NCBI RefSeq assembly: GCF_024699275.1
Contig: NZ_JAILPX010000074.1
Location: 1-64,000, forward strand
Length of the DNA: 64,000 bases
Direction of reading: 5' to 3'
Source: Selenomonas sp.
Lineage (GTDB): Bacteria > Bacillota_C > Negativicutes > Selenomonadales > Selenomonadaceae
Shown: positions 11,438-61,982 of the stretch, piece by piece
Layout: each line of letters opens with the position of its first letter
Position numbering within the stretch: the first letter of the stretch is position 1
Translations under genes and position numbers: made by a program
The notes under the pieces: model-generated
Seen by the model: the letters and a program-made list of their open reading frames with translations, nothing else
Databases searched by the model: none
What the model was told of the DNA's origin: nothing

Positions 11438-12261
11438 GACGCATCCCCTTTCGTTAATAGAGACTGCACTGGCTGTTCTCTGGGTACTTCCTGGGTATAG
11501 ATATCCGCATGGCCGGTCTGTGGATGAAAGCCCACATGAACCGCAACACCATAAGCCTGGCTCAGCAATTCTGGCTGCAAAACCGCTTTAGGCGCGCCAT
11601 CTGCCAAAAGCTTATTCTGTCCAATCAGCAGTAGACGGGAACAGAACCGGGCTGCCAGCGACAGGTCGTGTACCACCAGCAGGATGGTTCGGTCAGCCTG
11701 ACAAAGTTCCCGGCAGAAGCGGAAAAGTTCTTCCTGATAAAAAAGATCCAGCCCACTGGCAGGTTCATCCAGCAGCAGTAAAGGCGTTTGCTGGGCCAGG
11801 ACTTTAGCCAACAGCACCCGCTGCCGCTGACCGCCGGACAGGGTGTTTACCGGCATGTCCGCTAAATTTTTTACAGCCATATATTCCATGCAAGCCTCGG
11901 CGATGCGGATATCCTGAGGTCCTTCCCGCTGCCACCAGCGCAAATGCGGTGCCCGGCCCATCAGCACCACTTCCCTTACGGTAAACGCAAAAGGAACGTG
12001 ACTGCGCTGGGGAAGATAAGCCACTACTTTGGCCATTTCCTGGGGAGAATATTCTTGCAGTTTTTTTCCCTGAAGGGTTATTTTCCCTCCTGTAGGCAAA
12101 AGGCCTCGCATGGCTTTCAGCAAAGTACTTTTACCTGCCCCATTTGGTCCAATCAAGCCAATAAGTTCGCCACTGCCAGCCTGAAAGGAAACCTGCCGCA
12201 GAACATTTCTTCCGTTGTAACCGGCCTGCAATCCCTGTACATCAAGTAGTTCATTAACCAT
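11434..12261 (-). CDS. btuD: ABC transporter ATPase, cobalamin/siderophore type
   Basis: 275 residues. Walker A is GPNGAGKST, the Q-loop lies in AYLPQRS, the ABC signature is LSGGQRQR, Walker B is LLLLDEPASGLD, and the H-loop is VVHDLSLA. These are typical of FecE/BtuD-like subunits. Its ATG at 12261 overlaps the stop of the upstream receptor gene (TAATG), showing tight coupling. The longer reading frame adds 19 residues but has no better start. Confidence 0.87.
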   Translation of the reverse strand: MVNELLDVQGLQAGYNGRNVLRQVSFQAGSGELIGLIGPNGAGKSTLLKAMRGLLPTGGKITLQGKKLQEYSPQEMAKVVAYLPQRSHVPFAFTVREVVLMGRAPHLRWWQREGPQDIRIAEACMEYMAVKNLADMPVNTLSGGQRQRVLLAKVLAQQTPLLLLDEPASGLDLFYQEELFRFCRELCQADRTILLVVHDLSLAARFCSRLLLIGQNKLLADGAPKAVLQPELLSQAYGVAVHVGFHPQTGHADIYTQEVPREQPVQSLLTKGDAS

Positions 12262-14108
12262 TAAAACGATACCTTTACCCCCAATTGAAAAGAACGGCCC
12301 TGCAGCGGGTAATACCAACCGGTATATGCAGATTTGGGCACCAGATAGTACATCTGATTGGTCAGGTTATTGACTTTGAAGTACACATCTACGTTTTTGG
12401 CTGCTGCATAGGTGGTATTGAAATCCAAAATTGTGTAATGATGGCACCCATAGGTGTTGTTATCCAATCCGCTGCCAGCACGTCCCAGGATATTGGCTGT
12501 CCAGCGGCCACAGTGATAATGGACGCCCAGATGATAGCCATTAGGCTGGTAGTAAAGCACTTTGACTCCATCGGTCTTGGTGTCAATGTAGGAATAACCG
12601 ATATCATAGGACCAATGGGCAGATGGCTTACCGGTAAAGGATATCTGCACGCCCTGCTTCTTCTCTCGGGATACATTCATCGCGCTCGTCAGGGAAGTTG
12701 TGGAATCATAAATCCATTTGATGGCATCATGGAGGTCACTCCAGAAGTAACTGACATCCAAGGCTGCCTTGGGAGAGAATTCATGGGAAAAGCCGATGGT
12801 TTCCACATGCCCGGATTCCGGCTGCAGATGAGCATTGCCCTTCGTCCAGGGATCCGTATAGAACATATCATCCGCCGTCGGAGCCTTGAATACCCGGCCC
12901 CAGGAACCGTAGATTTTCGTCTGCTTGTCCGCCCGGTAATTGATTGCCGCCTTAGGCGTCCAATGGGTGCCAAAAGCATCGTGATGATCCATGCGCAGCC
13001 CGGGCACAAAGAACCATTTGTTTGTCAGCCGCATGGTATCCTGCACAAAAACGGCCTTGGTGGTAATCTTCTTATGTGCATAACCGCTTTGCCTGTTGGT
13101 GGATTCACTCTGATGCCATTCCGCTCCGGCCACCAATTTATTGTTTGGTCCCAACTTCCAGCCATTCTGATAATCTATGCCCTGCATATGGGTATCGTAT
13201 TTCCCTTTATAATCTGTGGATTTATAGTTGGCAAAATAGCGCAGAAAGCCTTTTACAGGCTGTTGTTCCTTAAAGTTCCAGGTCAGTGCCCCGTAATTGT
13301 AATTATGCTTCTGCCGGAGGCCGGCTGCATTGCCCAGTATCCCCATATCGGATAGTCTGTGGTTGAAATTCAGCTGCAAAGAATCATGAGCAGACAATTG
13401 TTTATCCAAACGGAACGAAAAGCTGTTATTGCGATAATCGCTATTGCCCATCCGGACATTGCGATCATTATCATCCTTGAATTTGAAATAGCCGCGTTTT
13501 TGTAAACCTGCCGTTACAAACCAGCTCCATCCCTGTTCACTACCCTGATTGGTCAGCTCATAATTATGCGTCCTAAAGGAACCCGTATTCAAATCGATTG
13601 TCGTTTCATTCTTTTTTCCCTTCCGGGTAATGATATTGACCACGCCACCGACAGCATCGCTGCCATAAAGGGCGGAACCGGCGCCCTTTACCACCTCAAT
13701 GCGTTCAATATTCTTCATGGACGGCAGCATGCCCAGATTGACACTGGCTCTGGTCATCGACCCTTGATCATTATTCAAACGCTGGCCATCCACCAGCACC
13801 ACCACACGCTGATCCCCATTGATGACCACTTCGGAATCGCCATTTGCATTCCCATTGGTTACGACCACGCCATTGACATTGGCTAGAGCCTCCCCAACCG
13901 TTTGATAATGGTTTGCTTCAATCTGCTGAGCTGTAATCACGGTTACATCTGCAGGAGTACTCATACGCTGGGATGGCATACGTTCTGCCGTAACGACCAT
14001 ATCCCCTAAGTCCTCGCTTACCGTTTCAGCCTGACATACTGTCGTTCCAAAGCACAGTGTTCCCAGGGCTAAAGCGGTTAGAATCCTGTTTGTTAATACC
14101 TTCTGCAT
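12261..14108 (-). CDS. btuB: TonB-dependent receptor, BtuB-like
   Basis: 615 residues. A signal peptide ends near CQAE. The TonB box region is LGDMVVTAERM. The plug carries VVLVDGQRLN, IERIEVVKGAGSALYGSDAVGGVVNIIT, and the barrel ends in LGVKVSF with terminal Phe. The compact size and the SALYGSDAVGGVVNIIT plug match cobalamin receptors. AAGGGGG lies 7 bases before the ATG. Together with btuF 12 bp upstream and the riboswitch, this makes corrinoid uptake likely. Confidence 0.87.
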   Translation of the reverse strand: MQKVLTNRILTALALGTLCFGTTVCQAETVSEDLGDMVVTAERMPSQRMSTPADVTVITAQQIEANHYQTVGEALANVNGVVVTNGNANGDSEVVINGDQRVVVLVDGQRLNNDQGSMTRASVNLGMLPSMKNIERIEVVKGAGSALYGSDAVGGVVNIITRKGKKNETTIDLNTGSFRTHNYELTNQGSEQGWSWFVTAGLQKRGYFKFKDDNDRNVRMGNSDYRNNSFSFRLDKQLSAHDSLQLNFNHRLSDMGILGNAAGLRQKHNYNYGALTWNFKEQQPVKGFLRYFANYKSTDYKGKYDTHMQGIDYQNGWKLGPNNKLVAGAEWHQSESTNRQSGYAHKKITTKAVFVQDTMRLTNKWFFVPGLRMDHHDAFGTHWTPKAAINYRADKQTKIYGSWGRVFKAPTADDMFYTDPWTKGNAHLQPESGHVETIGFSHEFSPKAALDVSYFWSDLHDAIKWIYDSTTSLTSAMNVSREKKQGVQISFTGKPSAHWSYDIGYSYIDTKTDGVKVLYYQPNGYHLGVHYHCGRWTANILGRAGSGLDNNTYGCHHYTILDFNTTYAAAKNVDVYFKVNNLTNQMYYLVPKSAYTGWYYPLQGRSFQLGVKVSF

Positions 14109-14120
14109 CAAAAATCCCCC

Positions 14121-15116
14121 TTAATTCTCTAATGCCGACAGATGTTGCTGCGGTTCCAATTTGAACTTATCACCATAGACGCGATAAGCTATTTCCTGTA
14201 CGGCAAAGACAAAATCCTGCGAACAGTTATATAGATAACCTTCATCCGGTTCCAGCAGGTTATTCTGCTGAATGGCCTTCATATTCTGCAATGACTGGTC
14301 ATGCAAATATTCATTCCGGAAGCGGTTAATATCAAATTTGCCATGATTGTTATAGGTGGGCAGGAACAGGATATCGGGATTGATTTCCACAAGTTTCTCC
14401 TTGCTCATTTCCTCGCCATTCCTGATGCCGGCAGCAGCACGGCCGTTGATTACTCCCGCCAACTGGCAGGCTTCATCAAAACAACAGCCCGCGCCGCCAT
14501 ACCCCTTCATCAGGGAAATCAGGACTACGCTGCGCCGTTCGCTTTTGGGAATCTCCTGCACTTTTGTGGTGATTTCCGCTAGTTTTTCATCCATTTTTTG
14601 CAGCAGGAGTTCCCCTCTCTGGGGCTCTCCAGCCGCCTGTGCCAATAACGTGACCGTCTCCTTGACTTCCTGCAGACTCCTGGGGCCCTTGCAGACCACT
14701 ACCGGAATACCCAAGTCCCGCAGGGCCTCTACCCGCGACAAATCTCCCCAGTCAGGGATGATTACCAGGTCCGGCTGCAGACTGGCAATCTCCTCCACAG
14801 ATGGATAACGGATTTTTGTTTCCACTTTCTTTCCCAATTCCACCACATTGGAACTGGCTGGATCATCTAGCATGGCATTGACTGCCGCCATGCGTTCCGG
14901 TTCCACCAGACCCAGCATGACCTCATCTGTGCTCATGGACATGGTCAAAATGCGCTGGGGCTTAGCCGGCATATGGACCTGTGTTCCCTGCGCATCGGTC
15001 ACCGTATAGGCGCTCGGCATCGCTGCCTGCGGTGTTTCCTGCTTACATCCCGCCAGGCAAATAAACAATAACAGACACAATACCGTCAAATGCCAGCCCT
15101 TGAACGTTCTTTGCAA
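14121..15116 (-). CDS. btuF: Corrinoid-binding lipoprotein (BtuF-like)
   Basis: About 331 residues. The N-terminus is a lipoprotein signal with lipobox LAGC, followed by a helical-backbone (TroA-like) binding domain: RILTMSMSTDEVMLGLVEPERM, PSVEEIASLQPDLVIIPDW, VEINPDILFLPTY. It delivers substrate to the BtuCD pair. The start is TTG 15116 because GGAGG lies 7 bases before it. It is the first gene of the operon, directly after the riboswitch and terminator. Confidence 0.87.
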   Translation of the reverse strand: MQRTFKGWHLTVLCLLLFICLAGCKQETPQAAMPSAYTVTDAQGTQVHMPAKPQRILTMSMSTDEVMLGLVEPERMAAVNAMLDDPASSNVVELGKKVETKIRYPSVEEIASLQPDLVIIPDWGDLSRVEALRDLGIPVVVCKGPRSLQEVKETVTLLAQAAGEPQRGELLLQKMDEKLAEITTKVQEIPKSERRSVVLISLMKGYGGAGCCFDEACQLAGVINGRAAAGIRNGEEMSKEKLVEINPDILFLPTYNNHGKFDINRFRNEYLHDQSLQNMKAIQQNNLLEPDEGYLYNCSQDFVFAVQEIAYRVYGDKFKLEPQQHLSALEN

Positions 15117-15131
15117 AATATATCCCTCCAA

Positions 15132-15165
15132 TAAAAAAGCCGTCCTCAAATCATGAGGACAGCTG
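15132..15165 (-). terminator. Riboswitch-controlled intrinsic terminator
   Basis: On the minus strand AGC-GTCCTCA pairs with TGAGGAC-GCT and is followed by six Ts, ending only a few bases before the btuF ribosome site. Its place between riboswitch and first gene suggests transcription attenuation by cobalamin. Confidence 0.8.
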
Positions 15166-17410: not shown

Positions 17411-17448
17411 AAAGGGGCAACGTCATCAAGACGTTGCCCTATTTTTTA
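17411..17448. terminator. Hairpin upstream of the P-loop gene
   Basis: GGGCAACGTC and GACGTTGCCC form a 10-bp stem around a short loop; the plus-strand side is followed by ATTTTTTAT. On the minus strand it lies downstream of the MATE gene and may end that operon. Confidence 0.5.
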
Positions 17449-17541: not shown

Positions 17542-19302
17542 TCAAATCGTCAAGGTAATGGTATTGAATCCCTGATAATTGCGATAGAGGAACTGCTGGG
17601 CATGGGATTTTACCGCATGCAGAACCAAAAGCCGAATATCGTAATTTTCCTTTTGGGCAGATAGTTTAGCCAGATTTTCGGATATCAGGGACAAGGGGTC
17701 CAGCTTTTCCCCATTGTTCCGCAAATGGAGCTGAAAAGAACCATCCTCTTTGGCCAAAAGCGTCAACTGTGTCAGCAGGGAATCATCATCCATGGATTGG
17801 GCCCGCTCAGCCATAAGGCCGCAGATTTCCTCCACCGCCAGACGCAGGGTATGACGTTTCTGGGAATCTGCCCCCCATTGGGCGGCAAAGGCTTCAATAG
17901 CATCCAGCTGTTCGGCTACAACAGCAAGTTTTCCCAGAAAGGACGCACTATAAATTCGCTCCGGAGATAGTTTTACCTGCTCGCCATTTTTGCGCTTGTA
18001 GAGATAGAGAATTATCAATGTGCCAATCTCTGCTAAGGGATAGACCAGCCAAAAGGCCGCAAAACCAAACTCAGCCAACAGGAAAGCCAGGGGCATACTG
18101 ACCCCTAACCGCCGCAGGAACACAATCAGAAAAGCGCCCTTTTCATCTTCTTCGGTTTGCAGATAATTTTGTAAGAGCAAAGTAAGCCCCATGAATATGG
18201 TGCCAATACAGAATACCCGGGCTGCATAGTACGCAAGCTCAGCATCCTGGATATCCTCCAGGCCGAAAAGCAGATCCAGGATTTGGGGATACAGGATAAC
18301 CAGCAAAGTGGCCAGGATACCCCAAAACAGGGAGTACCCCAAGGCATAGCGAAAGGTCCGATGCAGCTCCGTCTGATTCCCTTCGGCGAAGAAGGTGGAA
18401 AAGAGCGGCTGGGACGTCTTGCCGATGAATTCGTAAAGGAAGATGAACAGCAAGGACAGATTTTCAATGATGTTGAATACCGCTACCCCATCGGTTCCCG
18501 CCAGCTCCAGCACCAGATGGATAGCTGCCAGGGTAAAGATGGCGTCAAAGATATACTCCGAAGAGGTGGCAAAACCCAGCCGCAGCGGCTTAATGGCATC
18601 CCGCCAGGGAATAGTCCGGGAACGGAGGGATAGTTCACCATCTTTCCGAAAGAGGATATATCCCAAAGCGATACCAACAGCCAACAGATTGGCGATAAAG
18701 AAGCCAAAGCTGCAGCCGGCAATCCCCCAGTCAAACACGAAGAGCAGAAGAGCACTGATGCCCAGATTCACCACCCCGCTGGCTCCTTGAATGACCACAG
18801 ACAGATTATCCGCGTTGTCATTGCGAAGATAAGCGGTCAGCACTTCCATGAGGATTTCAAAGGGTATGCCCAGGAGAATGTACAGGATATAACTCCTGAC
18901 CATCTCATAGACCACCCCATCCTGGGGACCGGTGCCCAGCATGGCCAGCAGGCTGTCTTCAAAGAGCAGGCCGGCTGCGGTAATGGTAAAGCCCACAACC
19001 GCAGATAGACGCAGACAAAAGTTGAACAGTCCCAAGGCATCTTCCTTTTTTCCTTCGTGCATAAGGTTGCTGAAGACGATGGCTCCTCCCATGGAAAGGC
19101 CAAAGACGAAGAAAGTAGCTAGCAGGAACAACGGGGATACAAAGCCTACGGCAGCCAAACCATCCATGCCGATGGCATGACCCACCAGAATGGTATCCCC
19201 CATCTCGGCTAAAGACAAGCCTATGGCTGCCAAGGGTGCAGGCAGAACCGCATGGAAAAACATCCGGCGGGTAAAATACGCGTAATCGATTTTTGGGTTC
19301 AA
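17542..19302 (-). CDS. MATE-family exporter fused to a degenerate RsbW-like ATPase domain
   Basis: 586 residues. Residues 1 to about 450 are a MATE/MatE transporter with about twelve helices (LPAPLAAIGLSLAEMGDTILVG, ILYILLGIPFEILMEVLTAYLRNDN, LLLQNYLQTEEDEKGAF). Residues about 460-586 are soluble and resemble an RsbW/SpoIIAB-type GHKL domain: HTLRLAVEEICGLMAERA, then LRNNGEKLDPLS, then IRLLVLHAVKS and GFNTITLTI. The N-box Asn and a DxGxG motif are missing, so kinase activity is doubtful. It is last in the NRPS operon and probably exports the product. The transport direction and the soluble domain's role are inference. Confidence 0.78.
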   Translation of the reverse strand: MNPKIDYAYFTRRMFFHAVLPAPLAAIGLSLAEMGDTILVGHAIGMDGLAAVGFVSPLFLLATFFVFGLSMGGAIVFSNLMHEGKKEDALGLFNFCLRLSAVVGFTITAAGLLFEDSLLAMLGTGPQDGVVYEMVRSYILYILLGIPFEILMEVLTAYLRNDNADNLSVVIQGASGVVNLGISALLLFVFDWGIAGCSFGFFIANLLAVGIALGYILFRKDGELSLRSRTIPWRDAIKPLRLGFATSSEYIFDAIFTLAAIHLVLELAGTDGVAVFNIIENLSLLFIFLYEFIGKTSQPLFSTFFAEGNQTELHRTFRYALGYSLFWGILATLLVILYPQILDLLFGLEDIQDAELAYYAARVFCIGTIFMGLTLLLQNYLQTEEDEKGAFLIVFLRRLGVSMPLAFLLAEFGFAAFWLVYPLAEIGTLIILYLYKRKNGEQVKLSPERIYSASFLGKLAVVAEQLDAIEAFAAQWGADSQKRHTLRLAVEEICGLMAERAQSMDDDSLLTQLTLLAKEDGSFQLHLRNNGEKLDPLSLISENLAKLSAQKENYDIRLLVLHAVKSHAQQFLYRNYQGFNTITLTI

Positions 19303-19321
19303 GGCATAATTCCTTTCTCCA

Positions 19322-22300
19322 TCAGTGGTCCAACAAATGCATGATTTCCTGCACTTTTTTACCGGCCACTAAAGCATGGATAACCTGAGTATAATCGGCC
19401 ATGAATCTCTGCACAAAGGCATCGCTGTATTCTTTGGTATTATAGGTCAAATTCAGATAGAAATCGTCTTGACGGCGGTGGACAAAGAAATCAAAATTCT
19501 CTTCCTCAAAGTCCTCGATTTCTTCGTAATAAGCCTTGCCACCACAGAAATCAAAGGCGCCGTCCACATCCTCGCCCTGATAGGCAAAGGCAGCAATCAA
19601 AGGCACAGGATCGCCTTCGTAGAGGGCATGACGCCGACACTGAAGAATGCTGTCCTGGGTCTCTTTGACAAAGCGTTCAGCGGTCATATCCTCCTGCCAA
19701 CGGACGCAGAGGGGATAATGACGGTATATGGCCCCCATGGTGCGCTCATAACGAATATCATCACGGCCGTTGTAGATGGTCAGGGCAGCGGCGGCCTGTT
19801 CGCCATTATTCCGCGCCTGCAACAGGCCAAAGGAAGCTGCCAGCAGACTGCCGTCAGTAATTCCCTGGGCCTTGGTAAAAGCATCCACCGCTTTAAGGTC
19901 GATATGCAGCGGGACCATGATATCCCGCGTGTCATTTTCGCCCTTAGGATCTAAATCACCGGGCAGTTCACTTGGCCGCTGCGTAAAGGACTGCACATAG
20001 TTATGATTCCACTGTTGTTCCTGCTTATAAGCCTCCGTAGCCATGGTATCTTCAATTTCATCATAGTAGTCGAAGATGGTGTATTCTTCCGGCTCCAATT
20101 CTTTGCCCTGATAGGCTGCATCGATATCTGCCAGGAAAATATTGAGGGAATCCCCATCAATAATGGGATGCAGGAAATCAAAGTAGAATTCCTTGCTATG
20201 TGTTCCGTCAGCTTCTTCAATAAGGAAGAGCCGGGTAACGAACATGCGGGTTTCCGGCTTGTTCATGGACTGGCGTATACTTTTCTTTAGGTTATCGTAA
20301 TCCTGCCGGGATATATGCTCAACCACGGGCTTTACAGCTGCCATATCACCGCTGCGCCAGCGCAGCTCACCTGTTTTGGTGGCCGTAAGCCGGGCATCCA
20401 CAGCAGGATGGGCTTTTAACGTCGATTCAATGGCCGCAGCCAGTCGTTCCATATCCGTTTTGGGGTCCAGGGATACCGTGGCATCACAATGAAGACCATA
20501 GCCCTCCTCCAGGGAGTTGCCCCAATCATAATGGAGCTGATGCAAAGGACCAAAGAAATGGGTATCCCGGACCTTGCCCTGAGAAGAATTCTTTTGACGC
20601 TGATTTAAGAGACTGGCTATGCCCATGGGGGTCTTGCCCTCATAAATCAAGTTGAAATTCAACTGCAAATCCCGGCATTCTGAAAGGAGCCGGATCATGC
20701 TGAGGCTGTCGCCGCCAGCGGCAAAGAAATCCTCCGCTGCACTGACTCTGTCCATTCCTAAGGCCACACCGAAGCCCCGGGCAAGTTCTGCCTCCACATC
20801 ATTCTTAGGTGCCACATAGGGAGTAGCACTGGCATAGATTTCCGGCTCTGGCAGAGCTCTGCGGTTCAACTTGCCATTCTGATTGCGGGGAATGTCCGGT
20901 ATCTGCATGATGGCTGCAGGTACCATATAGGGTGGTTTGCGCTCCCGGATAAAATCAGCCAGGGCTTTGGGATCAATCGTTTCTGAAGATACCACATAGG
21001 CTGCAATGAACTTGCCCCCCGCGGGGTTGTCACAGGCCACCACGGCAGCATTTTCCACCGGTGGAAAATCGTGGATGACGCTCTCCACCTCGGCTAGTTC
21101 CACCCGGAACCCCCGAATTTTCACCAGACCATCCCGGCGGCCCACGAATTCGATATTGCCATCGGGTAAATACCGGACAATATCACCGGTACGATAGGCC
21201 GTAGCATAGTCCGAATGCTGACTGAAGGGATTGGCAATAAAGACCTCCTGCGTCTTTTCCGGCCGGTTAAGATAACCGCCTGTAACCTGCACACCGGCCG
21301 TCCAAAGCTCGCCCAATGCCCCTGGCGGCACCCGGCGGCCGGCACTGTCCACAACGTAGATAGCCGTATTATCCATAGGCGTGCCAATGGGAATATCGGG
21401 TTGGTATTTGGTCACATCATAACAGGTAATGGCAACGGTGGACTCGGTGGGGCCGTATTCATTGGCCATGATATAGGGATAGACAGGCTCAAAGGGAACC
21501 AGTTTCTCTCCCCCGACCACGATATATTTCAAAGAGGGACAATCCATGGTCAGGGCAAACTGCCGCCCCACCTGGCTGGGGAAATCTGCCAGATAGATTT
21601 GATGCTTGCGGATGAGCTGCGCCAGTGCCGGCAGGTCTAATTTCTTTTCTTCGGGAATAACCACCACAGCGCCCCCCACCGTCAATATGGGATACATATC
21701 CGCCAGGGAGCCGTCAAAACCATAACTGTTATAGCAGGTTACCCGCTTATCTGCCGCAGAGTCAAAATGGTGCCGGTGCCAGGATGCAAAAGCCATGAGA
21801 TTTCTATGCAGGAGACGCACGCCCTTGGGCACGCCCGTGGTGCCGGAGGTATAAATCAGCATGAACAGGTCATCCGGCTGCGGCCCTTCGATGGCGGCCA
21901 GTTCTGTTGCATTTGGTTTGGGCAGTTGGGGAATTTCCGACAAGCGCAGGGTCAGCCCTTGAAAATCCGGGAAATTAGCCAAACGATCTGCCAGCTGATC
22001 ATCCACAATCAACAGTTTGACTGCAGCATCCTTCGTCATAAAGGAGAGGCGCTCATCGGGATAGTTGGGATCCAGCGGCTCATAGGCGCAACCGGCTTTC
22101 AATACCCCCAGGGAAGCAATGACCATGTATTCAGAACGGTCAAGCAGAACCGCTGCCGTATCTCCTCGCCCTAATCCCTGTTGATGCAGGAAAAAGGCTA
22201 ACTTATCGGAAAGTTCTGTTACTTGTGCGTAAGTATATTCCCGCTCTTCATAGATGACGGCAATATTATCCGGCATCCTTTGCGCAGCCGCCCGAAACTG

Positions 22301-22951
22301 GTCAATAATCGTAGACTGACGGTCATATTCCCGCTCCGTTTGGTTAAACCGATCCAAAAGACTCATGGTTTCTGCTGGCGTAATGACCATATCTGCCAGC
22401 GTTTCAGCCTGCGCTAGATGCAAAAGGATTTCCCGCCAGGATAGTCCCATGGACTGGATAAACGCTTCAGAATAATGGGCAGATGCATAGCGGATTTCCA
22501 GTTTATCCATTGTCACCTGGAAAATCAGTGCCAATCCCGCTTGCTGCTTCAGAGGAATATCTCCATCCAAGGCCAAGGCTATGCCCCGACCCTTCTCCTG
22601 CCCCAACAAATCCCAAACAGCTTCCCTTGTCCAGCTGTAGGCAGCAGCTTCCTTGAGCATGGAGGCCGAAGCTGCTGCCAATTTCTGCGGAGAATCTTCC
22701 TGACGCCAACTCTGCCGCAGAGGCAGGAATTCCTGCTTTTCATAGACGATGAGCCCGGCTTCTGTAAGTCCTCCATATACCCCCAGCAGATAAAGCACAC
22801 TGGCAAGCTTTTCCCCTTTGCTGCTCTCATGTTCATAGGCCAGTGTCCATTTCTGCCACGGATTATCGGCAGATTCCCGCCGGTCTGGCAAAGGCAGACA
22901 GTCCGGCATTTCATCCGCAAAATTTTTTTGACACCATGTTTCCTTATCCAT
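19322..22951 (-). CDS. Nonribosomal peptide synthetase, partial C - A - PCP - C
   Basis: About 1209 residues. Residues 1-210 look like the back half of a condensation domain without a HHxxxDG motif. The adenylation domain (about 215-720) has LIYTSGTTGVPKG, NEYGPTEST, YRTGD, GRRDGLVKIRGFRVELAE and NGKLNRRALP, with Asp in FDGSLADMY where amino-acid A domains anchor the amino group. A carrier domain follows with the phosphopantetheine Ser in AAGGDSLSMI. The C-terminal condensation domain has the catalytic His in LHPIIDGDS. There is no thioesterase. It sits between the STAS-condensation fusion and the MATE fusion, probably making a short peptide or amide. The product cannot be predicted. Confidence 0.88.
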   Translation of the reverse strand: MDKETWCQKNFADEMPDCLPLPDRRESADNPWQKWTLAYEHESSKGEKLASVLYLLGVYGGLTEAGLIVYEKQEFLPLRQSWRQEDSPQKLAAASASMLKEAAAYSWTREAVWDLLGQEKGRGIALALDGDIPLKQQAGLALIFQVTMDKLEIRYASAHYSEAFIQSMGLSWREILLHLAQAETLADMVITPAETMSLLDRFNQTEREYDRQSTIIDQFRAAAQRMPDNIAVIYEEREYTYAQVTELSDKLAFFLHQQGLGRGDTAAVLLDRSEYMVIASLGVLKAGCAYEPLDPNYPDERLSFMTKDAAVKLLIVDDQLADRLANFPDFQGLTLRLSEIPQLPKPNATELAAIEGPQPDDLFMLIYTSGTTGVPKGVRLLHRNLMAFASWHRHHFDSAADKRVTCYNSYGFDGSLADMYPILTVGGAVVVIPEEKKLDLPALAQLIRKHQIYLADFPSQVGRQFALTMDCPSLKYIVVGGEKLVPFEPVYPYIMANEYGPTESTVAITCYDVTKYQPDIPIGTPMDNTAIYVVDSAGRRVPPGALGELWTAGVQVTGGYLNRPEKTQEVFIANPFSQHSDYATAYRTGDIVRYLPDGNIEFVGRRDGLVKIRGFRVELAEVESVIHDFPPVENAAVVACDNPAGGKFIAAYVVSSETIDPKALADFIRERKPPYMVPAAIMQIPDIPRNQNGKLNRRALPEPEIYASATPYVAPKNDVEAELARGFGVALGMDRVSAAEDFFAAGGDSLSMIRLLSECRDLQLNFNLIYEGKTPMGIASLLNQRQKNSSQGKVRDTHFFGPLHQLHYDWGNSLEEGYGLHCDATVSLDPKTDMERLAAAIESTLKAHPAVDARLTATKTGELRWRSGDMAAVKPVVEHISRQDYDNLKKSIRQSMNKPETRMFVTRLFLIEEADGTHSKEFYFDFLHPIIDGDSLNIFLADIDAAYQGKELEPEEYTIFDYYDEIEDTMATEAYKQEQQWNHNYVQSFTQRPSELPGDLDPKGENDTRDIMVPLHIDLKAVDAFTKAQGITDGSLLAASFGLLQARNNGEQAAAALTIYNGRDDIRYERTMGAIYRHYPLCVRWQEDMTAERFVKETQDSILQCRRHALYEGDPVPLIAAFAYQGEDVDGAFDFCGGKAYYEEIEDFEEENFDFFVHRRQDDFYLNLTYNTKEYSDAFVQRFMADYTQVIHALVAGKKVQEIMHLLDH

Positions 22952-22972
22952 CAATCCCCATCCCTTTTCCGT

Positions 22973-24568
22973 TTATTTGAGCAGTTCCATGATTTGAACG
23001 TTCTCATCCTGTAATCCCTGTACCATCTTTTCCATGGTGGCGGCAAACTTACGCATATTCCCCTCGGTGTAGCGGAAGTTGTCATAATCCAGTACCAGGG
23101 AATAGGTGCCATCATCATGGGAATTCATTTCGATATCCAACGTGTTATCGGCAGCTGAAATATCATTGGCAGGCATTTCTACGACATTGGCTTCTCCACC
23201 GGCAAATTTCATGGAGCCCCGGCGTCCCATACTGCCCTTCTGCAGGATAAAACTGGGAATACCATCATCCAAATCCTCTTCATAGACCACACGCAGGCTC
23301 TTCCGGTATTGCAGTCCTTCGTTAATCTTATCTTCCAGTTCCGTTAAGTAGGTCAGCACGTCCATTTCCCGGCCAAACTTCCAACGCAGGGGGAACTGGT
23401 CAATCATCAATCCCATAAGCCGCCGCTCGGCAGAAGTCATGCGGCCATTGTGCACCCAGCCCAGAATGGCATCCTTCCGATTCCTTGTCTTGGCTAAAGC
23501 CAACAGCGCTGCTCCAATAAAAAAGGTATTTTCTGTGAAACTTTTACCCTTAAAGAACTTTTTATCCATTCCGGCAAAGGGAACCTCAATCTCATGTTCC
23601 GGCGTTTCCCGTTCGCCCTGTACATCCGGTTCGGGCAGATACTCTTCCTCCGTAAAACCTTCCAGCATCTTACGCCAGTAATCCTGACCCACCTGTCTTT
23701 CTTCCTCAGAAAGATTATTTTCGGACAGGATATAATCGCTGTACATATGAATTTTCCCTAAGCCCTTTACTTCTTCCCCTTTCATGATCTGATTATAGCG
23801 TTTTTCCAGATCCCGCCAAAAGAGCAGCACGATGGCTGTGCCGTCCATGATGGCATGATAGAAATCCATATAAAAGAGATTAGCTGAGGCCGTCTTCATC
23901 AGGTAGATACGGTAGAGCGGATGGTCAATCAATTCATAAGGAAGCTTCAGCTCCTGTTTGCGTTTTTCCAATGCTTCATCCGACAGGGTTTCCACGTAAA
24001 CCTTGCCCACTTCCCCATCAAACCTTTGGCAGATTTCCCCGGTTTCCGGATGAAAGACCAGGCGGCAGCGGAAGATATCGTAGGCGGTCAGCAGGCTGTT
24101 GAGTGCCTCTGCCAGTTTTTCCATATTGATGGAGGAATCCATCTGAACCAACGCGCCGGTGTTCAGCATGGTGGACTGGGCTTTCTGGAAATGGGTATCC
24201 ACCATCCAGCGCTGTACAGGCCGCAGCGGATAGAATATGGGGCTCTTTGCATCGGTTTCCCGTTCCACAATGGTGACCACATTATCAAAACGGGTGGCAT
24301 TGAATACGCCCATCACATCTTCCGTAGGATAAAGTACCTTTATATCCCCACCCTGTTGGGTCATTTTTTTCTTGGCTATGATCAGGGAGCGTAATCCAGC
24401 CGATGCGATATAGCTCAATTCGGAAAAATCCAATTCCGCTTCCTGTATCCCCTCGGCTGCTTCAGCGAAGGCCTCATTGAAATCTCTGGCCTCCAGTGTG
24501 CTCAATTTTCCCTGCAGCTTCATTCTTAAATGGCTTCCCTGTTTTTCGGTGGTAATCATCAATCCCAT
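22973..24568 (-). CDS. STAS-domain and condensation-domain fusion protein
   Basis: 531 residues. Residues 1-105 form a SpoIIAA-like STAS domain (LQGKLSTLEARDF, ELDFSELSYIASAGLRSLIIAKK). Ser56 lies where anti-sigma antagonists carry the phosphorylated serine. Residues about 112-531 form an NRPS-type condensation domain: YPLRPVQRWMV, LLTAYDIFRCRLVF, catalytic-type FYHAIMDGTA, LMGLMIDQFPLRW. AGGA precedes ATG 24568, overlapping the end of the phosphatase gene. This domain pairing suggests that condensation activity or docking is controlled by serine phosphorylation. I do not know a characterised example. Family calls are firm; regulation is inference. Confidence 0.82.
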   Translation of the reverse strand: MGLMITTEKQGSHLRMKLQGKLSTLEARDFNEAFAEAAEGIQEAELDFSELSYIASAGLRSLIIAKKKMTQQGGDIKVLYPTEDVMGVFNATRFDNVVTIVERETDAKSPIFYPLRPVQRWMVDTHFQKAQSTMLNTGALVQMDSSINMEKLAEALNSLLTAYDIFRCRLVFHPETGEICQRFDGEVGKVYVETLSDEALEKRKQELKLPYELIDHPLYRIYLMKTASANLFYMDFYHAIMDGTAIVLLFWRDLEKRYNQIMKGEEVKGLGKIHMYSDYILSENNLSEEERQVGQDYWRKMLEGFTEEEYLPEPDVQGERETPEHEIEVPFAGMDKKFFKGKSFTENTFFIGAALLALAKTRNRKDAILGWVHNGRMTSAERRLMGLMIDQFPLRWKFGREMDVLTYLTELEDKINEGLQYRKSLRVVYEEDLDDGIPSFILQKGSMGRRGSMKFAGGEANVVEMPANDISAADNTLDIEMNSHDDGTYSLVLDYDNFRYTEGNMRKFAATMEKMVQGLQDENVQIMELLK

Positions 24569-24578
24569 GGATAATTCC

Positions 24579-26759
24579 TCACTTTCCCCTATAGCGCAAT
24601 CCCAGCATGGTTATATCATCGGATTGCTCAGCATCCCCTGCATATTGCCGGACAACCTGCAGCATCTGGTCTAAAATGGCCGATACATCCTGGCGGTCAG
24701 ACAAATGATTAAGCCCCTCTTTAATGCGGGCTTCGGTAAACAATTCATCCTGTTCATTCATGGCTTCAGAAACACCGTCCGTATAGATGAACAGGGTGTC
24801 CTGCGGCGATAAATCGATACTCTGCTGGGTATAATCTCTTTCGGTTAAACCCAGTACACAGTTTTTCTTCAAGGGCATGAATTCATAGTGGCCTTCATGC
24901 CCTAAGAGTGGAGGGCAGTGCCCGCCGTTGGCATAGGTGAAGTGCCCCGTCTCCAAATCCAGCACGCCGATAAATACCGTAACGAACATTGTGGCTTCGT
25001 TATTTTGACAAAGCTCATTATTAGCTTTCGACAAGATTCGTCCCATATCCTCCGGGTTATCTGCCCGCAGTACGGCATTTTTCAGCACAGACTGGGATTT
25101 GGCCATGAACAGCGCCGCAGGGACTCCCTTGCCGGATACATCTGCCACGGTAACCACAAGATAGCGTCTGCGCAGCAGATAAAAATCGTAAAAGTCACCG
25201 CCGACGTTCTTGGCTGGTTCCATCAAAGCATAAATATCGAACTCTGGATGGTCGGGGAAGTCCGTAAAATTCTGGGGCAGCATGTCCGCCTGAATTTTGC
25301 CTGCTACGGATAATTCTGTACGGGTACGCTCCTCCTTGGCTGCTACATTGGCCAGATTTTTCATGTATTTTTTCAGTTCATCCGTCATGAAATTAAAGGC
25401 CTCGGCCAAATGCTCCAGCTCATCACCTGTGGTCAGGGTAATCTTCTTGTCAAAATTTCCCCGGGCAATCTCGCGGGCACCTTCAGCCAAGCGGCGTACG
25501 GGACGGGTAAAGCGTCCCGCCAGCCAATCGCTGATATAGATGAGCAAGATCAGAATGGGAATCAGGAGCAACAACCCCCAGAGCAGAACCGTGGATAAGG
25601 TTTCCTGCAGGGTTTTCTGGAAAGCCTGCACCTTGGTCATGACATCACTTTCTACCTTTTCTACCGGATCCATGATTTCCGAGCTATCCAGCAAAAGACA
25701 GAGACTCCAGCCGATGTTTTGCAGCGGCGCATAGGCCAGATAATAGGATTTCCCATCCAGCTCTACGGAAGTAACACATGTATCGCCTTTGGTCATACAC
25801 TGGGCAGCTTCTGCTATACCGGGGTTATCGGACTGACGAAGGTCTTTTTTCTCAGATGCCACCGACAACAACCCTTCTTTTTCAGAAGAGAGGATGATAT
25901 TTCCGGAACCATCCACCACAAAACTATCCCCGTTGTACTCCATGGCAGTTTCCACCAAGGATTCATAAATATCTTCCACAGTGTAACTTATCCCCATTAC
26001 CCCGGCAAAACCATTGGCATCGTAATAGGGCAGAGCACAGGTCATGTCCAGATTTCCCTCTGCGCCGATATAGGCATTGGAAAAAATCGGTTTATCTGCA
26101 TCTTTGCCCTGGATATACCAGGTCCGGTTGCGATGGTCATAGTTATTCAGGAAGTCCCTCTTGTGCTCCGGGGATGGAAATATACTGGTTTGCGTATTAT
26201 CCGAGGTAACCAGATCAAGGCAGAGCAGATATCCGTTCTTGGACCCTGCATATAAAGAAGACCGTCCGCCCATATAGGCCAGACTCATGGAACGCAGCAC
26301 ATCGGCAAAATTAGACGCCAGGGCGATTTCTTTTTCCATTTCCGGGCTGACACCCTGCTGCAGCATAGCCGCGCTGTAATGAATGTAGGGCTTGCCAGAC
26401 AGGATATCCGCTTCCTTGCGCGTATCGGGCAGACTGCGAGGCCGGTAATCTTCCGGATGAGTCAGAATGATGTACATGGCATTGGCCATATAGCGTAAAT
26501 CATCCTGAATATTATAGAGTTCCCGATCCAGATGCTGGGCCTTGGTGGCCGTAACTTCCTTCAATCGGGCTCGAGCAAAACGTTCGGTATAGCCCCCCAT
26601 AGAGTCCGTTAAGAATAGGCCCAGGTTCGCACTTTCCCCCTCCATGGCCTTCCGGGTTTTGGTCAGACTGTATATGGATAAGCCAGCTACTGCCAGCGAT
26701 GTTGTTATTACACCAGAGAGCAGGATGAACAAAACTTTCCTGCGAATTGATAACCTCAA
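24579..26759 (-). CDS. Membrane sensor serine phosphatase: dCache - HAMP - SpoIIE/PP2C
   Basis: About 726 residues. A first membrane helix (VLFILLSGVITTSLAVAGLSIY) is followed by a ~330-residue extracytoplasmic dCache region (NRTWYIQGKDADKPIFSNAY, FAGVMGISYTVEDIY, YYLAYAPLQNIGWSLCLLLD). A second helix, a HAMP segment (FTRPVRRLAEGAREIARGNF) and a PP2C/SpoIIE domain follow, with metal-binding NVGGDFYDF, VTVADVSGKGVPAALFMA, YANGGHCPP, YTDGVSEAMN and SDDITML. TTG 26759 is chosen because GAGGGGG lies 6 bases before it. It heads the NRPS operon and is the natural phosphatase for the STAS serine in the next gene. Confidence 0.88.
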   Translation of the reverse strand: MRLSIRRKVLFILLSGVITTSLAVAGLSIYSLTKTRKAMEGESANLGLFLTDSMGGYTERFARARLKEVTATKAQHLDRELYNIQDDLRYMANAMYIILTHPEDYRPRSLPDTRKEADILSGKPYIHYSAAMLQQGVSPEMEKEIALASNFADVLRSMSLAYMGGRSSLYAGSKNGYLLCLDLVTSDNTQTSIFPSPEHKRDFLNNYDHRNRTWYIQGKDADKPIFSNAYIGAEGNLDMTCALPYYDANGFAGVMGISYTVEDIYESLVETAMEYNGDSFVVDGSGNIILSSEKEGLLSVASEKKDLRQSDNPGIAEAAQCMTKGDTCVTSVELDGKSYYLAYAPLQNIGWSLCLLLDSSEIMDPVEKVESDVMTKVQAFQKTLQETLSTVLLWGLLLLIPILILLIYISDWLAGRFTRPVRRLAEGAREIARGNFDKKITLTTGDELEHLAEAFNFMTDELKKYMKNLANVAAKEERTRTELSVAGKIQADMLPQNFTDFPDHPEFDIYALMEPAKNVGGDFYDFYLLRRRYLVVTVADVSGKGVPAALFMAKSQSVLKNAVLRADNPEDMGRILSKANNELCQNNEATMFVTVFIGVLDLETGHFTYANGGHCPPLLGHEGHYEFMPLKKNCVLGLTERDYTQQSIDLSPQDTLFIYTDGVSEAMNEQDELFTEARIKEGLNHLSDRQDVSAILDQMLQVVRQYAGDAEQSDDITMLGLRYRGK

Positions 26760-35030: not shown

Positions 35031-38000
35031 TTATTGTAGCTTCGTGAAGATATATACGGCACGGATTTGATTCGGCATAGCACCGATATCTTGAATAGCG
35101 GATAGGATACCAGTCGAAAGAACGGCCCGAACCGCATTTTTACTTCCATGCATCAACACATTCAATGAATCTTTATCCTCTGGATAAATTGCCACAATAC
35201 CATTACCATACGTTACTTCATAATTTCCCTCGCGACTTTGATACATGAAATTGTAATCCTTAATCGAGTCCTTACGAATCTCCGAAGGCTCTGGAATCGT
35301 AACTTTTTGTGATGCCGGCATAATGGCTAATTTTTCCGGATTATAATTGATGGTGTAAATTCCATCTAGCGTTTTTGATTCACCATCTGTATGCAGAACC
35401 GGGATAGCCCCCTGTGTTTCGCTGCGGCCATCTTCGCCTTTATGTTCACCAACATGATTTTCCTGCGTAGAAGATGTATTTTCTCCCAACACAAGACCAA
35501 AAGAACCATCAGCGGCTACTTCAAAGGACTGTGTTGATGGCTCATTGTCACCTCCCGTAACCACAATAGAATTCGGTTGTAATAATGATCCTGCTATATT
35601 CACCGGAGCTTCGATATTGGGGTCCATCGTGCCGACTTCGGAAACAAAGCCGGCCTGGCCGCCAGAAACAGGTGCTGTCGATGAAAGCACAGACGAAACA
35701 GTTTGCGGTGTATCTGAACCGATTGTATGCGGGAGATTTGACTGTGTCCCTGCATCAATACTTGTTTTGATAGTTGTATTCGTAACCAATTCAATTGCTA
35801 TGTTTTCCGTCGGCTGCGGCTGCTCTGGTACCTCAGGCTCCGGTGTAGTCGGTTGTGATTCCGGTTCCGTTACCTGCGTATCGGGTTCATCTGTCGGCTG
35901 CGGCTGCTCTGGTACTTCAGGCTCCGGTGTAGTCGGCTGCGATTCCGGCTCCGTTACCTGCGTATCGGATTCATCTGTCGGTTGAGGTTTCTCTGGTACG
36001 GTTGGTTCCGGTGTAGTCGGTTGTGATTCCGGTTCCGTTACCTGCGTATCGGATTCATCTGTCGGTTGAGGTTTCTCTGGTACGGTTGGTTCCGGTGCAT
36101 TTTGCTGCGATTCCTGCTCCGTTATACTTTTTTGTGCCTCTTCAGCATAAATCGTTAAAGTTCCTGGGGCATAAGAGAAGTTATAATTTTTCGGATCTGT
36201 CCCTACAAAAGTCCAACCATCACTGACGTGAATTGCATCCTTGTACACACCAGCATCCGTTGTCGGCTTCATATTTTCATCATAGTACATCGTGACATGG
36301 GTGATTTGATCATCATCGAGTAAACCACGGCCAGAACCGGTTGTACCGCGCTCTACCGTATAGGCCTCTACTACGGGATTTTCTTCACCATAGGTACGTG
36401 AAGCAGAGCCTGCCGTAATTAAAACATCCCGCGGTTTGATATCCAGTTTTCCCGCTTGTTTATCAATTACGTAATCTCCTTTCTTCGCGTTTCCTATAAC
36501 ATTGACATCGGTGATATCAATTGCATAAGTACCAACGTTTGACCGTGAATTAGCCGTACTGGAATATTTCGTATTCAGACTATCGCCTGCCGCCAGTGTT
36601 CCTTCAGAAATTTTATACTGGAAATTTGGATTGTTTTCACCATATATTCGCGAATCATCGATTGCCTGGATGGTTAAGTGACGCGGAACAATCTTAAAAT
36701 CAATATGAATGGTTGCATTGAGATTATTATCGCCCGTGTATTCCACCAGACGATCCGTTTCGGTGGCAGTCCCCTGCGGAACACTGCCATAGACGGCACC
36801 TTCTGCCGGACCACCAGTTGTATTGACGTCGGTCGTTTTGGTTAATTTTTCATCCCATCGATAGGATTTATCCGGCTCATTGCGCAATGCATCAAGCAAC
36901 TGTTTATATTGGCTCCGCTCACGCTCCGTTCCCTTATGGTCTTTATCGGCCAGTTCCACCTTGAAGGCATCGCTGGTAATGAAATTGGCATTGCCATCAC
37001 CGTAAGTGCGTTCGGAGGTTACGTTTACGACCAAGGGCTTGGTATAGGCCAGGACATTTCCATCCCAACCATAATCTTTCTGTTTCGGATTTTTGATTTC
37101 CGAATCATCCTGGGTATCGTAACGAATTCCGTTGGGAACCAGTGTGCCAGGGTTATCGCCTTCCGGGCTGTCCGTATGGATAATCCACCGCTGCGATTCT
37201 GGCGTCTTTATGACTTCTTTGCCTGGTTTAGTATTTTCATTGATGAAATGACCCTTGGACGCATCCAGCATCACTCCCCCCACGGTCGATTCAATACTGC
37301 CCGTGGAATCGATTTTTAGGTTACCATCCGTCTGGAAAGTAACCGTCTCCCCTTGAATATGGCCCGTAATCGTGGTTGTATTTTCGGTAACGGTTTTACC
37401 GTTTGCCGGTGTATTGTTTATGGCCACGGTTTTACCAGTCACATCGCCGATTTCCTTGATATGGTTTTCCGGATTGGACAGGTTGATATCGCCACCTGAT
37501 GCAATTGTTACCTTATCGGCAGACAGGCCGCCACCGGTACTGCTCTGGTCGACATCACCTTTCGTCTGGATATTAACCACACTGGTGGTCGTGCCATTAC
37601 TCTTAGGCGCCGTAAAATCATTGACCGTAATCTTACCCGTATGATCCTCGCCGCCAAAATTGATTTCGTTAAAGCCATGGAAAATCGCAGTTTCCTTGGT
37701 CGTATCGGTATCAAACCAGGCCTTATCAATATCCAGCCCCTCTGTACCGGTCTTACCAATATGGATTTCCCGTTCCGGGTCAAAGGTATCCAGGGTCAAC
37801 TTGCCGCCCTGTGTCGTCTTAATACTATTGCTCCCCTGGCTCGTGTCGTTCGTCAGACTGTTGGTCGAAATGTTGACATTACCCGTTGTGGTTTCAATAT
37901 CCACACCGGAGAGTACAACGTTCTGGCTATGGATGTTATAATCCTTTTCGCCAAAGGACATCTTGCCGCTGATTTTGACCGCCGCCTGGGCATTCCGATA

Positions 38001-44084: not shown

Positions 44085-44105
44085 TATTTCATCTATACGG
44101 AGCAA

Positions 44106-58132: not shown

Positions 58133-58705
58133 TTATTTTTGATTCAATGCAATATGAATCAAATGGGTGCTTTGTTGGTTTATTTGTTTAAGTTTGTAGG
58201 CCATAGAACCCTGGATATGCAAAAGCTCCCCTTTTTTCAGCAGAATCTCTTCTGTATCAGCATAGAGAAGAAAATCCCCATCATAGGCATAGAAAAAATC
58301 TGTGCCAACCGTCGAGTGTTGCCAATTTTCTCTGGTAATACATTGGATGGTTATTTGGAAAGGCGCTTCTTTATGCCACATCACGTTAAAATCCTGACAA
58401 ATTCCCTGACTGATGGTTGTTACTCCCCCATCAAAATAATGGGGCTGGAAGGGTTGCAGCCTTTGAAACTCTCCTGGTCCATGCCGCAAACTGACCTGTC
58501 CTGACAGTACCATCAGACAGCGTTGGTATTCCGGTAAATTCGTGAAAATGGATGTTTCGGCTTCTACAGTAGCTGTACTGATTCGTAAGGTAAAATTCCT
58601 TTGCTTATAAGAACTGGTGGGTTCCTGCAGGTATAGTTCTCTAGTCAGGCCGCCAGACCAGGCAGTTGTGTGCTGTTCAGCAGGGACGATGATGTGGTAA
58701 TTCAC
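58133..58705 (-). CDS. hutD: HutD-family protein
   Basis: About 190 residues of cupin type: TTAWSGGLTRELYLQEP, NFTLRISTATVEAETSIFTNLPEYQRCLMVLSGQVSLRH, FQPHYFDGGVTT, DFNVMWHKEA. HutD proteins accompany histidine-degradation genes and may limit urocanate-driven induction. GTG 58705 has GGAGGAG six bases upstream and lies inside the end of hutI, so the genes are coupled. Confidence 0.8.
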   Translation of the reverse strand: MNYHIIVPAEQHTTAWSGGLTRELYLQEPTSSYKQRNFTLRISTATVEAETSIFTNLPEYQRCLMVLSGQVSLRHGPGEFQRLQPFQPHYFDGGVTTISQGICQDFNVMWHKEAPFQITIQCITRENWQHSTVGTDFFYAYDGDFLLYADTEEILLKKGELLHIQGSMAYKLKQINQQSTHLIHIALNQK

Positions 58706-59942: not shown

Positions 59943-59947
59943 GAATA

Positions 59948-61969: not shown

Positions 61970-61982
61970 ATTCAACAGCTCC

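What the first reader, a model, noticed from the sequence alone, without database searches (positions are those of the whole stretch)
17542..26759. Peptide-synthesis operon wired to a partner-switching circuit
One minus-strand operon encodes a membrane Cache-HAMP-SpoIIE phosphatase, a STAS domain fused to a condensation domain, an NRPS with one A and one carrier domain, and a MATE exporter fused to an RsbW-like domain. The three classical partner-switch parts (phosphatase, STAS antagonist, GHKL kinase) are thus split across a biosynthesis and export pathway rather than a sigma factor. The genes are spaced by 10-21 bases. This suggests extracellular-signal control of NRPS activity or export by serine phosphorylation. 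I know of no described system of this form.
Basis: partly seen in the sequence, partly recalled or inferred. Interest (0 to 1): 0.88.

Follow-up and report, generated by a model that had tools for sequence, protein, structure and literature searches.

The report
Peptide-synthesis operon with built-in phospho-switch domains
A bacterium related to rumen Selenomonas carries a conserved four-gene operon in which a peptide-making enzyme and its exporter each have a piece of a bacterial protein switch fused to them, which suggests that an outside signal controls how synthesis and export are coupled.

Summary
The operon is real: a Cache-HAMP-SpoIIE phosphatase, a STAS-condensation fusion, an NRPS and a MATE exporter with an RsbW-like tail. 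STAS-condensation fusions occur in 43 of 80 fetched loci, all with the switch serine; MATE follows in 40, and the other three contigs end first. In two bacterial families the NRPS is found almost only with STAS-condensation and never with room for its own complete front condensation domain. Main correction: the MATE tail folds like SpoIIAB/RsbW and is under purifying selection, but lacks the catalytic N-box Asn in all 23 tails of its class; separate RsbW-like kinases keep it (22 of 22 entries), and one lies inside the operon in four loci. My reading: the tail is a pseudokinase dock for the STAS-borne condensation domain, with the kinase in trans. Against: some relatives lack tail, phosphatase or NRPS, and nothing was tested at the bench. 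Prior art: a phosphatase, anti-sigma antagonist, NRPS and MatE neighbourhood was reported in Methanobrevibacter ruminantium (2010). The fusions appeared in none of my paper searches. New variant of partner switching.

The parts
24579..26759 (-). Membrane phosphatase: dCache sensor, HAMP, SpoIIE/PP2C (about 726 aa from TTG 26759; the longest ORF reaches 26873)
   Evidence: Pfam; solved relatives of SpoIIE/RsbU and response-regulator phosphatase type; GGDFYD, ADVSGKG and SDDIT motifs visible in the translation (their meaning is recalled)
22973..24568 (-). STAS-condensation fusion, 531 aa: STAS about 1-105, low-confidence linker 104-109, condensation 112-519 or later, with HAIMDG
   Evidence: Pfam; A1 alignment; AlphaFold2 pLDDT 87.2; Foldseek condensation matches
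24401..24403 (-). Ser56 codon of the STAS domain, aligned to the Ser of the RsbV DST motif and the TM1442 DSAG motif
   Evidence: invariant in 35 of 35 sequences
19322..22954 (-). NRPS, 1210 aa: N-terminal 205 aa (possible remnant condensation C-lobe), adenylation, carrier, C-terminal condensation (HPIIDG)
   Evidence: Pfam; hhalign of the N-terminus to condensation domains, E about 2-4e-4 for a single comparison but probability only 15-21%
17542..19302 (-). MATE exporter (residues 1 to about 432) with RsbW-like tail (about 447-586) that lacks the N-box Asn
   Evidence: Pfam; tail alignments; fold
17414..17440 (-). Terminator-like hairpin downstream of the MATE gene
   Evidence: pattern match; 13 found against 10.6 expected in the region, so weak alone

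Best explanation
The operon makes and exports a small amino-acid-derived product with a split NRPS under partner-switch control. SHOWN (sequence): the NRPS has no complete N-terminal condensation domain, and the neighbouring STAS protein carries one; the STAS serine is conserved; the MATE tail has the RsbW/SpoIIAB fold (predicted) but lacks the catalytic Asn. INFERRED: (1) the STAS-borne condensation domain works in trans at the front of the NRPS; (2) a canonical RsbW-like kinase, in the operon in some species and elsewhere in the genome in others, phosphorylates STAS Ser56; (3) the Cache-SpoIIE phosphatase removes that phosphate when its outside ligand changes; (4) the unphosphorylated STAS domain docks on the RsbW-like pseudokinase tail of the MATE exporter, so the condensation enzyme, and with it the synthetase, sits at the exporter only when the signal says so. 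The control would act on the location or activity of an enzyme, not on a sigma factor.
For: STAS-C is followed by MATE in 40 of 43 loci; the other three contigs end first. NRPS and STAS-C travel together: in the family of the Succiniclasticum ruminis genome 7 of 59 genomes carry each, the same 7; in the family of the S. ruminantium ATCC 12561 genome 15 of 189 carry the NRPS, 12 of these with full STAS-C, one with a fragment at a contig end, two with the NRPS near a contig start and no full STAS-C seen. No NRPS frame exceeds 1251 aa, and the 23 proteins found with the N-terminal piece are at most 1216 aa (up to about 2100 aa was allowed), so none shows room for a complete N-terminal condensation domain. 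N-box Asn: 22 of 22 separate-kinase entries keep it, 0 of 23 tails of this class. An intact kinase, a second STAS and a second phosphatase follow the MATE gene in 4 of 22 loci, and a kinase lies just before STAS-C in the edge-cut locus L018. Tail dN/dS 0.02-0.26 in 12 pairs: a kept domain. The phosphatase tracks the tail: in 19 of 22 loci with a recognisable tail, 1 of 14 with a strongly diverged tail (11 of the 14 had over 2.3 kb of upstream sequence), 0 of 3 with none. Partial correlation of divergence STAS-tail 0.32, against condensation-tail 0.20 and STAS-MATE -0.17. Five of six clostridial MATE-tail loci also carry a SpoIIE phosphatase and an intact kinase, separate or fused to STAS or to the phosphatase.
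Against: Nothing biochemical. Three Lachnospiraceae-type loci have STAS-C, NRPS and MATE with no tail, no phosphatase and no kinase nearby, yet keep the serine, so the serine alone does not prove a local switch. Fourteen loci have STAS-C and MATE (diverged tail) but no NRPS, and four of the main class have none either; 16 of the 28 genomes with full STAS-C lack this NRPS. So STAS-C cannot serve this NRPS only. No kinase or further STAS was found in the 64-kb window and no whole genome was held, so the kinase in this organism is unseen. Within S. ruminantium the STAS variants and tail variants do not pair up, and the condensation-tail correlation is also above most permutations (15 of 2000 reach it). 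The loci are clustered by lineage, so counts are not independent. Nine of 48 MATE tails elsewhere keep the Asn. The six kinase seeds were picked with a pattern that itself asks for the Asn, so only the other 16 entries test its conservation.
Confidence: 0.42

Rival explanations
1. One reading: the MATE tail is the active kinase, STAS-C its substrate and the SpoIIE protein the phosphatase; the exporter itself phosphorylates and inactivates the condensation enzyme.
For: Same fold as SpoIIAB/RsbW/SiaB; the two N-box glutamates (or Asp) remain in nearly all tails and the G1 aspartate in 42 of 48; the phosphatase co-occurs; some clostridial tails keep the Asn.
Against: N-box Asn absent in 23 of 23 tails of this class and 28 of 28 proteins found by tail search; the window's own G1 Asp is Asn; the G2 box is degraded; a separate kinase with the Asn is present in each of the 8 genomes tested.
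Confidence: 0.13
2. Transcriptional control, as proposed for M. ruminantium: phosphatase and STAS sense the environment and act on a trans-encoded anti-sigma factor that controls expression; the fusions only tether the parts and do not switch the enzyme.
For: Proposed by Leahy et al. 2010 for a similar neighbourhood; extra free STAS genes sit in 9 of 22 loci of this class and could be the true antagonist.
Against: It does not explain why STAS is fused to the condensation domain, and an RsbW fold to the exporter, across families; no sigma-factor domain in the four operon proteins.
Confidence: 0.2
3. The conserved core is not an NRPS system but a stand-alone condensation-type acyltransferase plus MATE exporter; the NRPS is an optional supplier in some lineages.
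For: 14 of 14 loci with diverged MATE tails and 4 of 22 of the main class have no NRPS in the stretch held; condensation proteins without STAS, often beside a MATE and sometimes in tandem, are common among the other 37 loci (Quinella and other Selenomonadaceae); clostridial MATE-tail clusters carry GNAT (L111-L113) or LPG-synthase-type (L116) transferases.
Against: Where the NRPS exists it is nearly always with STAS-C and shows no room for a complete N-terminal condensation domain, so in the window the NRPS link is strong.
Confidence: 0.17

Closest known systems
RsbU-RsbV-RsbW / SpoIIE-SpoIIAA-SpoIIAB partner switching
   Same: SpoIIE-type phosphatase, STAS domain with the phospho-site serine, RsbW/SpoIIAB fold
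   Different: STAS is fused to a condensation enzyme; the RsbW fold is fused to an exporter and has lost a catalytic residue; no sigma factor among the four genes
SiaABCD of Pseudomonas aeruginosa (abstracts and section lists of PMC7647112 and PMC8457831 read)
   Same: PP2C-like phosphatase, kinase and phosphoprotein whose partner is an enzyme (diguanylate cyclase), not a sigma factor; the tail fold also matches SiaB
   Different: Separate proteins, threonine phosphosite, c-di-GMP output; the phosphatase scores 96 bits against the SiaA model cut-off of 700
mru0066-mru0071 NRPS cluster of Methanobrevibacter ruminantium M1 (PMC2812497, passages read)
   Same: Serine phosphatases, anti-sigma factor antagonist, NRPS and MatE exporter together; authors inferred environment sensing, regulation of NRPS expression and export
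   Different: NRPS there has two C-A-T modules and a terminal thioesterase; no STAS-condensation fusion or MATE tail is mentioned in the passages I read; sequence not available to me for a direct test
Clostridial MATE-RsbW tail clusters found here (L111-L113, L115, L116)
   Same: MATE with RsbW-like tail beside a SpoIIE phosphatase and an intact kinase domain
   Different: No NRPS found in the stretches held; GNAT or LPG-synthase-type transferases in four of the five; tails of L111-L113 and L115 keep the N-box Asn

Membership tests
RsbUVW/SpoIIAA-AB partner-switching module | SpoIIE-type PP2C phosphatase with sensor domain | tested here: met
   SpoIIE 156 bits, dCache, HAMP
RsbUVW/SpoIIAA-AB partner-switching module | STAS antagonist with a serine at the phospho-site | tested here: met
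   STAS 41.8 bits; Ser56 aligned to RsbV; invariant 35 of 35. Phosphorylation itself not tested
RsbUVW/SpoIIAA-AB partner-switching module | GHKL kinase with intact N-box (the MATE tail) | tested here: not met
   Asn absent, 0 of 23 tails of the class
RsbUVW/SpoIIAA-AB partner-switching module | Intact GHKL kinase encoded with the module | tested here: inconclusive
   In the operon in 4 of 22 loci of the class and beside STAS-C in L018; not found in the 64-kb window; whole genome not held
RsbUVW/SpoIIAA-AB partner-switching module | Sigma factor as the controlled partner | tested here: inconclusive
   No sigma domain in the four operon proteins; the rest of the genome could not be searched
SiaABCD | Phosphatase is a SiaA equivalog | tested here: not met
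   96.4 bits against a cut-off of 700
SiaABCD | Controlled enzyme is a diguanylate cyclase | tested here: not met
   No GGDEF domain in the four operon proteins
NRPS | Adenylation, carrier and condensation domains with active-site motifs | tested here: met
   HPIIDG and HAIMDG motifs, GGDS carrier serine; motif meaning recalled
MATE exporter | MatE domain above cut-off | tested here: met
   95.6 bits, cut-off 24.9; NCBIfam's own MATE subfamily model is below its cut-off (123.7 against 147.4)
M. ruminantium mru0066-0071 type cluster | Phosphatase, STAS, NRPS and MatE genes together | tested here: met
   Gene content from the paper passages; homology of the two clusters could not be tested

The most novel reading that the evidence does not exclude
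A partner switch that controls the geometry of an assembly line: phosphorylation of the STAS domain decides whether a free-standing condensation domain serves the NRPS or is held at the exporter, and a former RsbW kinase has become a pseudokinase dock on a MATE transporter. The same dock, with other transferases in place of the NRPS, would be a general way to hand a small molecule from its maker to its exporter on an outside signal.
Probability: 0.3. Interest if true: 0.83.

Novelty: new variant of a known kind. Interest (0 to 1): 0.64.

Why it matters
I know of no case (recall) in which an NRPS condensation domain is fused to a phospho-switch domain, or an exporter to a dead RsbW fold. If the STAS domain gates the condensation step or its delivery to the exporter, this gives a testable link between an extracellular signal and secondary metabolism in rumen-type bacteria, and a natural adaptor pair (STAS and RsbW-like tail) for joining enzymes to transporters.

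Tried and rejected
Search of the window's own genome: not held, so the kinase of this organism could not be sought. Matched STAS/tail variants within S. ruminantium (a sign of binding specificity): the STAS and, in some strains, the tail vary more than the rest of their proteins, but the variant groups do not match; not used as evidence. N-terminal 205 aa of the NRPS: no Pfam family; 22 of the 23 proteins found are 1206-1216 aa, one is 696 aa; hhalign to condensation domains covers the whole piece but with low probability, so 'remnant C-lobe' stays a suggestion. Substrate of the adenylation domain: from the LgrA alignment and recalled specificity positions I read a pocket with two acidic residues, which could suit a basic amino acid; too weak to claim. 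NCBIfam named no equivalog above its cut-off among the rows shown (for two proteins only the best 25 were shown). Paper searches: searches gave 0 papers; two gave 4 and 6, judged unrelated from title and abstract start; one gave 2, of which I opened PMC2812497 (passages); others listed rumen, methanogen and other papers, of which I opened only PMC8241843 (passages for five terms: no hit for STAS or condensation). Only open-licence papers are held, so this does not prove absence.

Rows dropped before counts: L092, L096 and L097 (repeats of L075, L011, L001), one partial repeat in L088, and tails scoring under 20 bits. L088 stayed in beside L011 although it is the same kinase gene, and L107 is a 66-aa fragment, so the 22 entries are 21 genes; six of them were seeds chosen by a pattern that asks for the Asn. 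One search counts only the 43 STAS-fused loci of the 80; four of these (L018, L021, L024, L038) could not be classed by tail because the contig ends. The structure alignment A2 contained 5 separate kinases among 27 rows, which favours the RsbW fold; the window tail alone finds no RsbW in the PDB by sequence, while the A2 profile does. The match list is cut at the weak end; the 28 genomes with full-length STAS-C are my count of its strongest rows.
Full report
OBSERVATION. Pfam confirms Cache-HAMP-SpoIIE, STAS + Condensation, AMP-binding + carrier, and MatE. Two corrections: the NRPS also ends in a Condensation domain (97.5 bits), and the RsbW-like match of the MATE tail is below Pfam's cut-off in the window (23.2 against 27.4 bits), though above it in a relative (35.5 bits).

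THE STAS-CONDENSATION FUSION IS A FAMILY. A protein search gave 325 matches, of which 120 are listed (the query included); 117 of the 120 carry both STAS and Condensation domains, at 42-77% identity, and the few names given are Selenomonas, Schwartzia, Selenomonadaceae, Acidaminococcaceae, Fretibacterium (MAG) and Firmicutes. In an alignment of 35, Ser56, Asp242 and Gly243 are invariant. Ser56 aligns with the Ser of the RsbV DST motif. AlphaFold2 gives two confident domains with a loose linker at 104-109, and the condensation part matches Txo2, surfactin and other condensation structures.

GENOMIC CONTEXT. A genome scan kept 80 loci, of which 43 encode the fusion, all with the serine. MATE follows in 40 of 43; the other three contigs end first. 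By tail type: 22 loci with a recognisable RsbW-like tail (phosphatase in 19, within 400 bases upstream in 18; NRPS in 18; extra STAS in 9; intact kinase in 4); 14 with a strongly diverged tail (phosphatase in 1, NRPS in 0; 11 had over 2.3 kb upstream); 3 Lachnospiraceae-type loci with no tail (phosphatase in 0, NRPS in 3); 4 cut by contig ends. Loci are clustered by lineage, so these are not independent events. The ten flanking proteins scanned in L028, L035 and L039 are unrelated.

NRPS AND STAS-C: DEPENDENCE ONE WAY. In the family of the Succiniclasticum ruminis genome, 7 of 59 genomes have the NRPS C-terminal domain and the same 7 have STAS-C. In the family of the S. ruminantium ATCC 12561 genome, 15 of 189 have the NRPS and, by my count of the listed places, 28 have full-length STAS-C. 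Twelve of the 15 have both, one has a STAS-C fragment at a contig end beside the NRPS, and in two the NRPS lies near a contig start with no full STAS-C seen. The reverse does not hold: 16 of the 28 have STAS-C without this NRPS. NRPS frames not cut short are 1206-1251 aa, and no protein found with the N-terminal piece exceeds 1216 aa. The piece aligns weakly along its whole length to the C-lobe of condensation domains. I infer that the front condensation domain is supplied in trans by STAS-C.

STAS-TAIL LINK. Partial correlation of divergence between STAS and tail is 0.32 after removing condensation and MATE-core divergence (0 of 2000 permutations reach it), against 0.20 for condensation-tail (15 of 2000) and -0.17 for STAS-MATE, over 35 operons. 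Relatedness is not fully removed by this test. Variants within S. ruminantium do not pair.

MECHANISM. Most likely: signal at the Cache domain -> SpoIIE dephosphorylates STAS-C Ser56 -> STAS binds the pseudokinase tail on MATE -> condensation enzyme and NRPS are gathered at the exporter. An intact kinase in trans resets it. Every arrow is inference; the parts are shown.

PRIOR ART. In passages of PMC2812497, M. ruminantium M1 has an NRPS surrounded by two serine phosphatases, an anti-sigma factor antagonist and a MatE protein, and a further cluster with phosphatase, antagonist, kinase and acyltransferase; the authors suggested environment sensing and regulation of NRPS expression. So the neighbourhood is known; the fusions, the split condensation domain and the pseudokinase tail did not appear in what my searches listed or in the passages I read. 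SiaABCD (abstracts) shows that a partner switch can control an enzyme.

VERDICT.

Noticed in passing
L029:537-9984: A second NRPS (1302 aa, HHLLMDG) with its own STAS gene and two Cache-SpoIIE phosphatases lies directly upstream of the STAS-C operon.
   Followed up: partly
L078:8213-17649: An Oscillospiraceae (MAG) NRPS locus with a SpoIIE domain and a 517-aa STAS-kinase fusion in open frames nearby; a different wiring of the same parts (the frames overlap ORFs on the other strand and were not checked).
   Followed up: no
L022, L025, L026, L027, L071 (S. ruminantium paralogue): The start of the STAS domain is more variable between strains (76-85% DNA identity per 200 bases) than the condensation and MATE core or the flanking genes (mostly 90-100%); the tail is raised too in two of four comparisons.
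   Followed up: partly
L040, L052, L055: Tandem condensation-domain proteins without STAS or adenylation domain, in L040 and L052 beside a MATE; function unclear.
   Followed up: no
L111-L113: Clostridial clusters of MATE-RsbW tail, SpoIIE phosphatase, GNAT transferase(s) and kinase; the MATE tails keep the N-box Asn, so may still be kinases.
   Followed up: partly
window 35031-45791: A 3024-aa ORF next to a ShlB/FhaC-type POTRA outer-membrane protein: looks like a two-partner secretion pair (the 3024-aa ORF itself was not scanned).
   Followed up: no
window 12261-15149: TonB-dependent receptor next to a periplasmic binding protein: probably a metal or cofactor uptake cluster.
   Followed up: no
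window 58677-61975: Urocanase next to an amidohydrolase: probably histidine-use genes.
   Followed up: no
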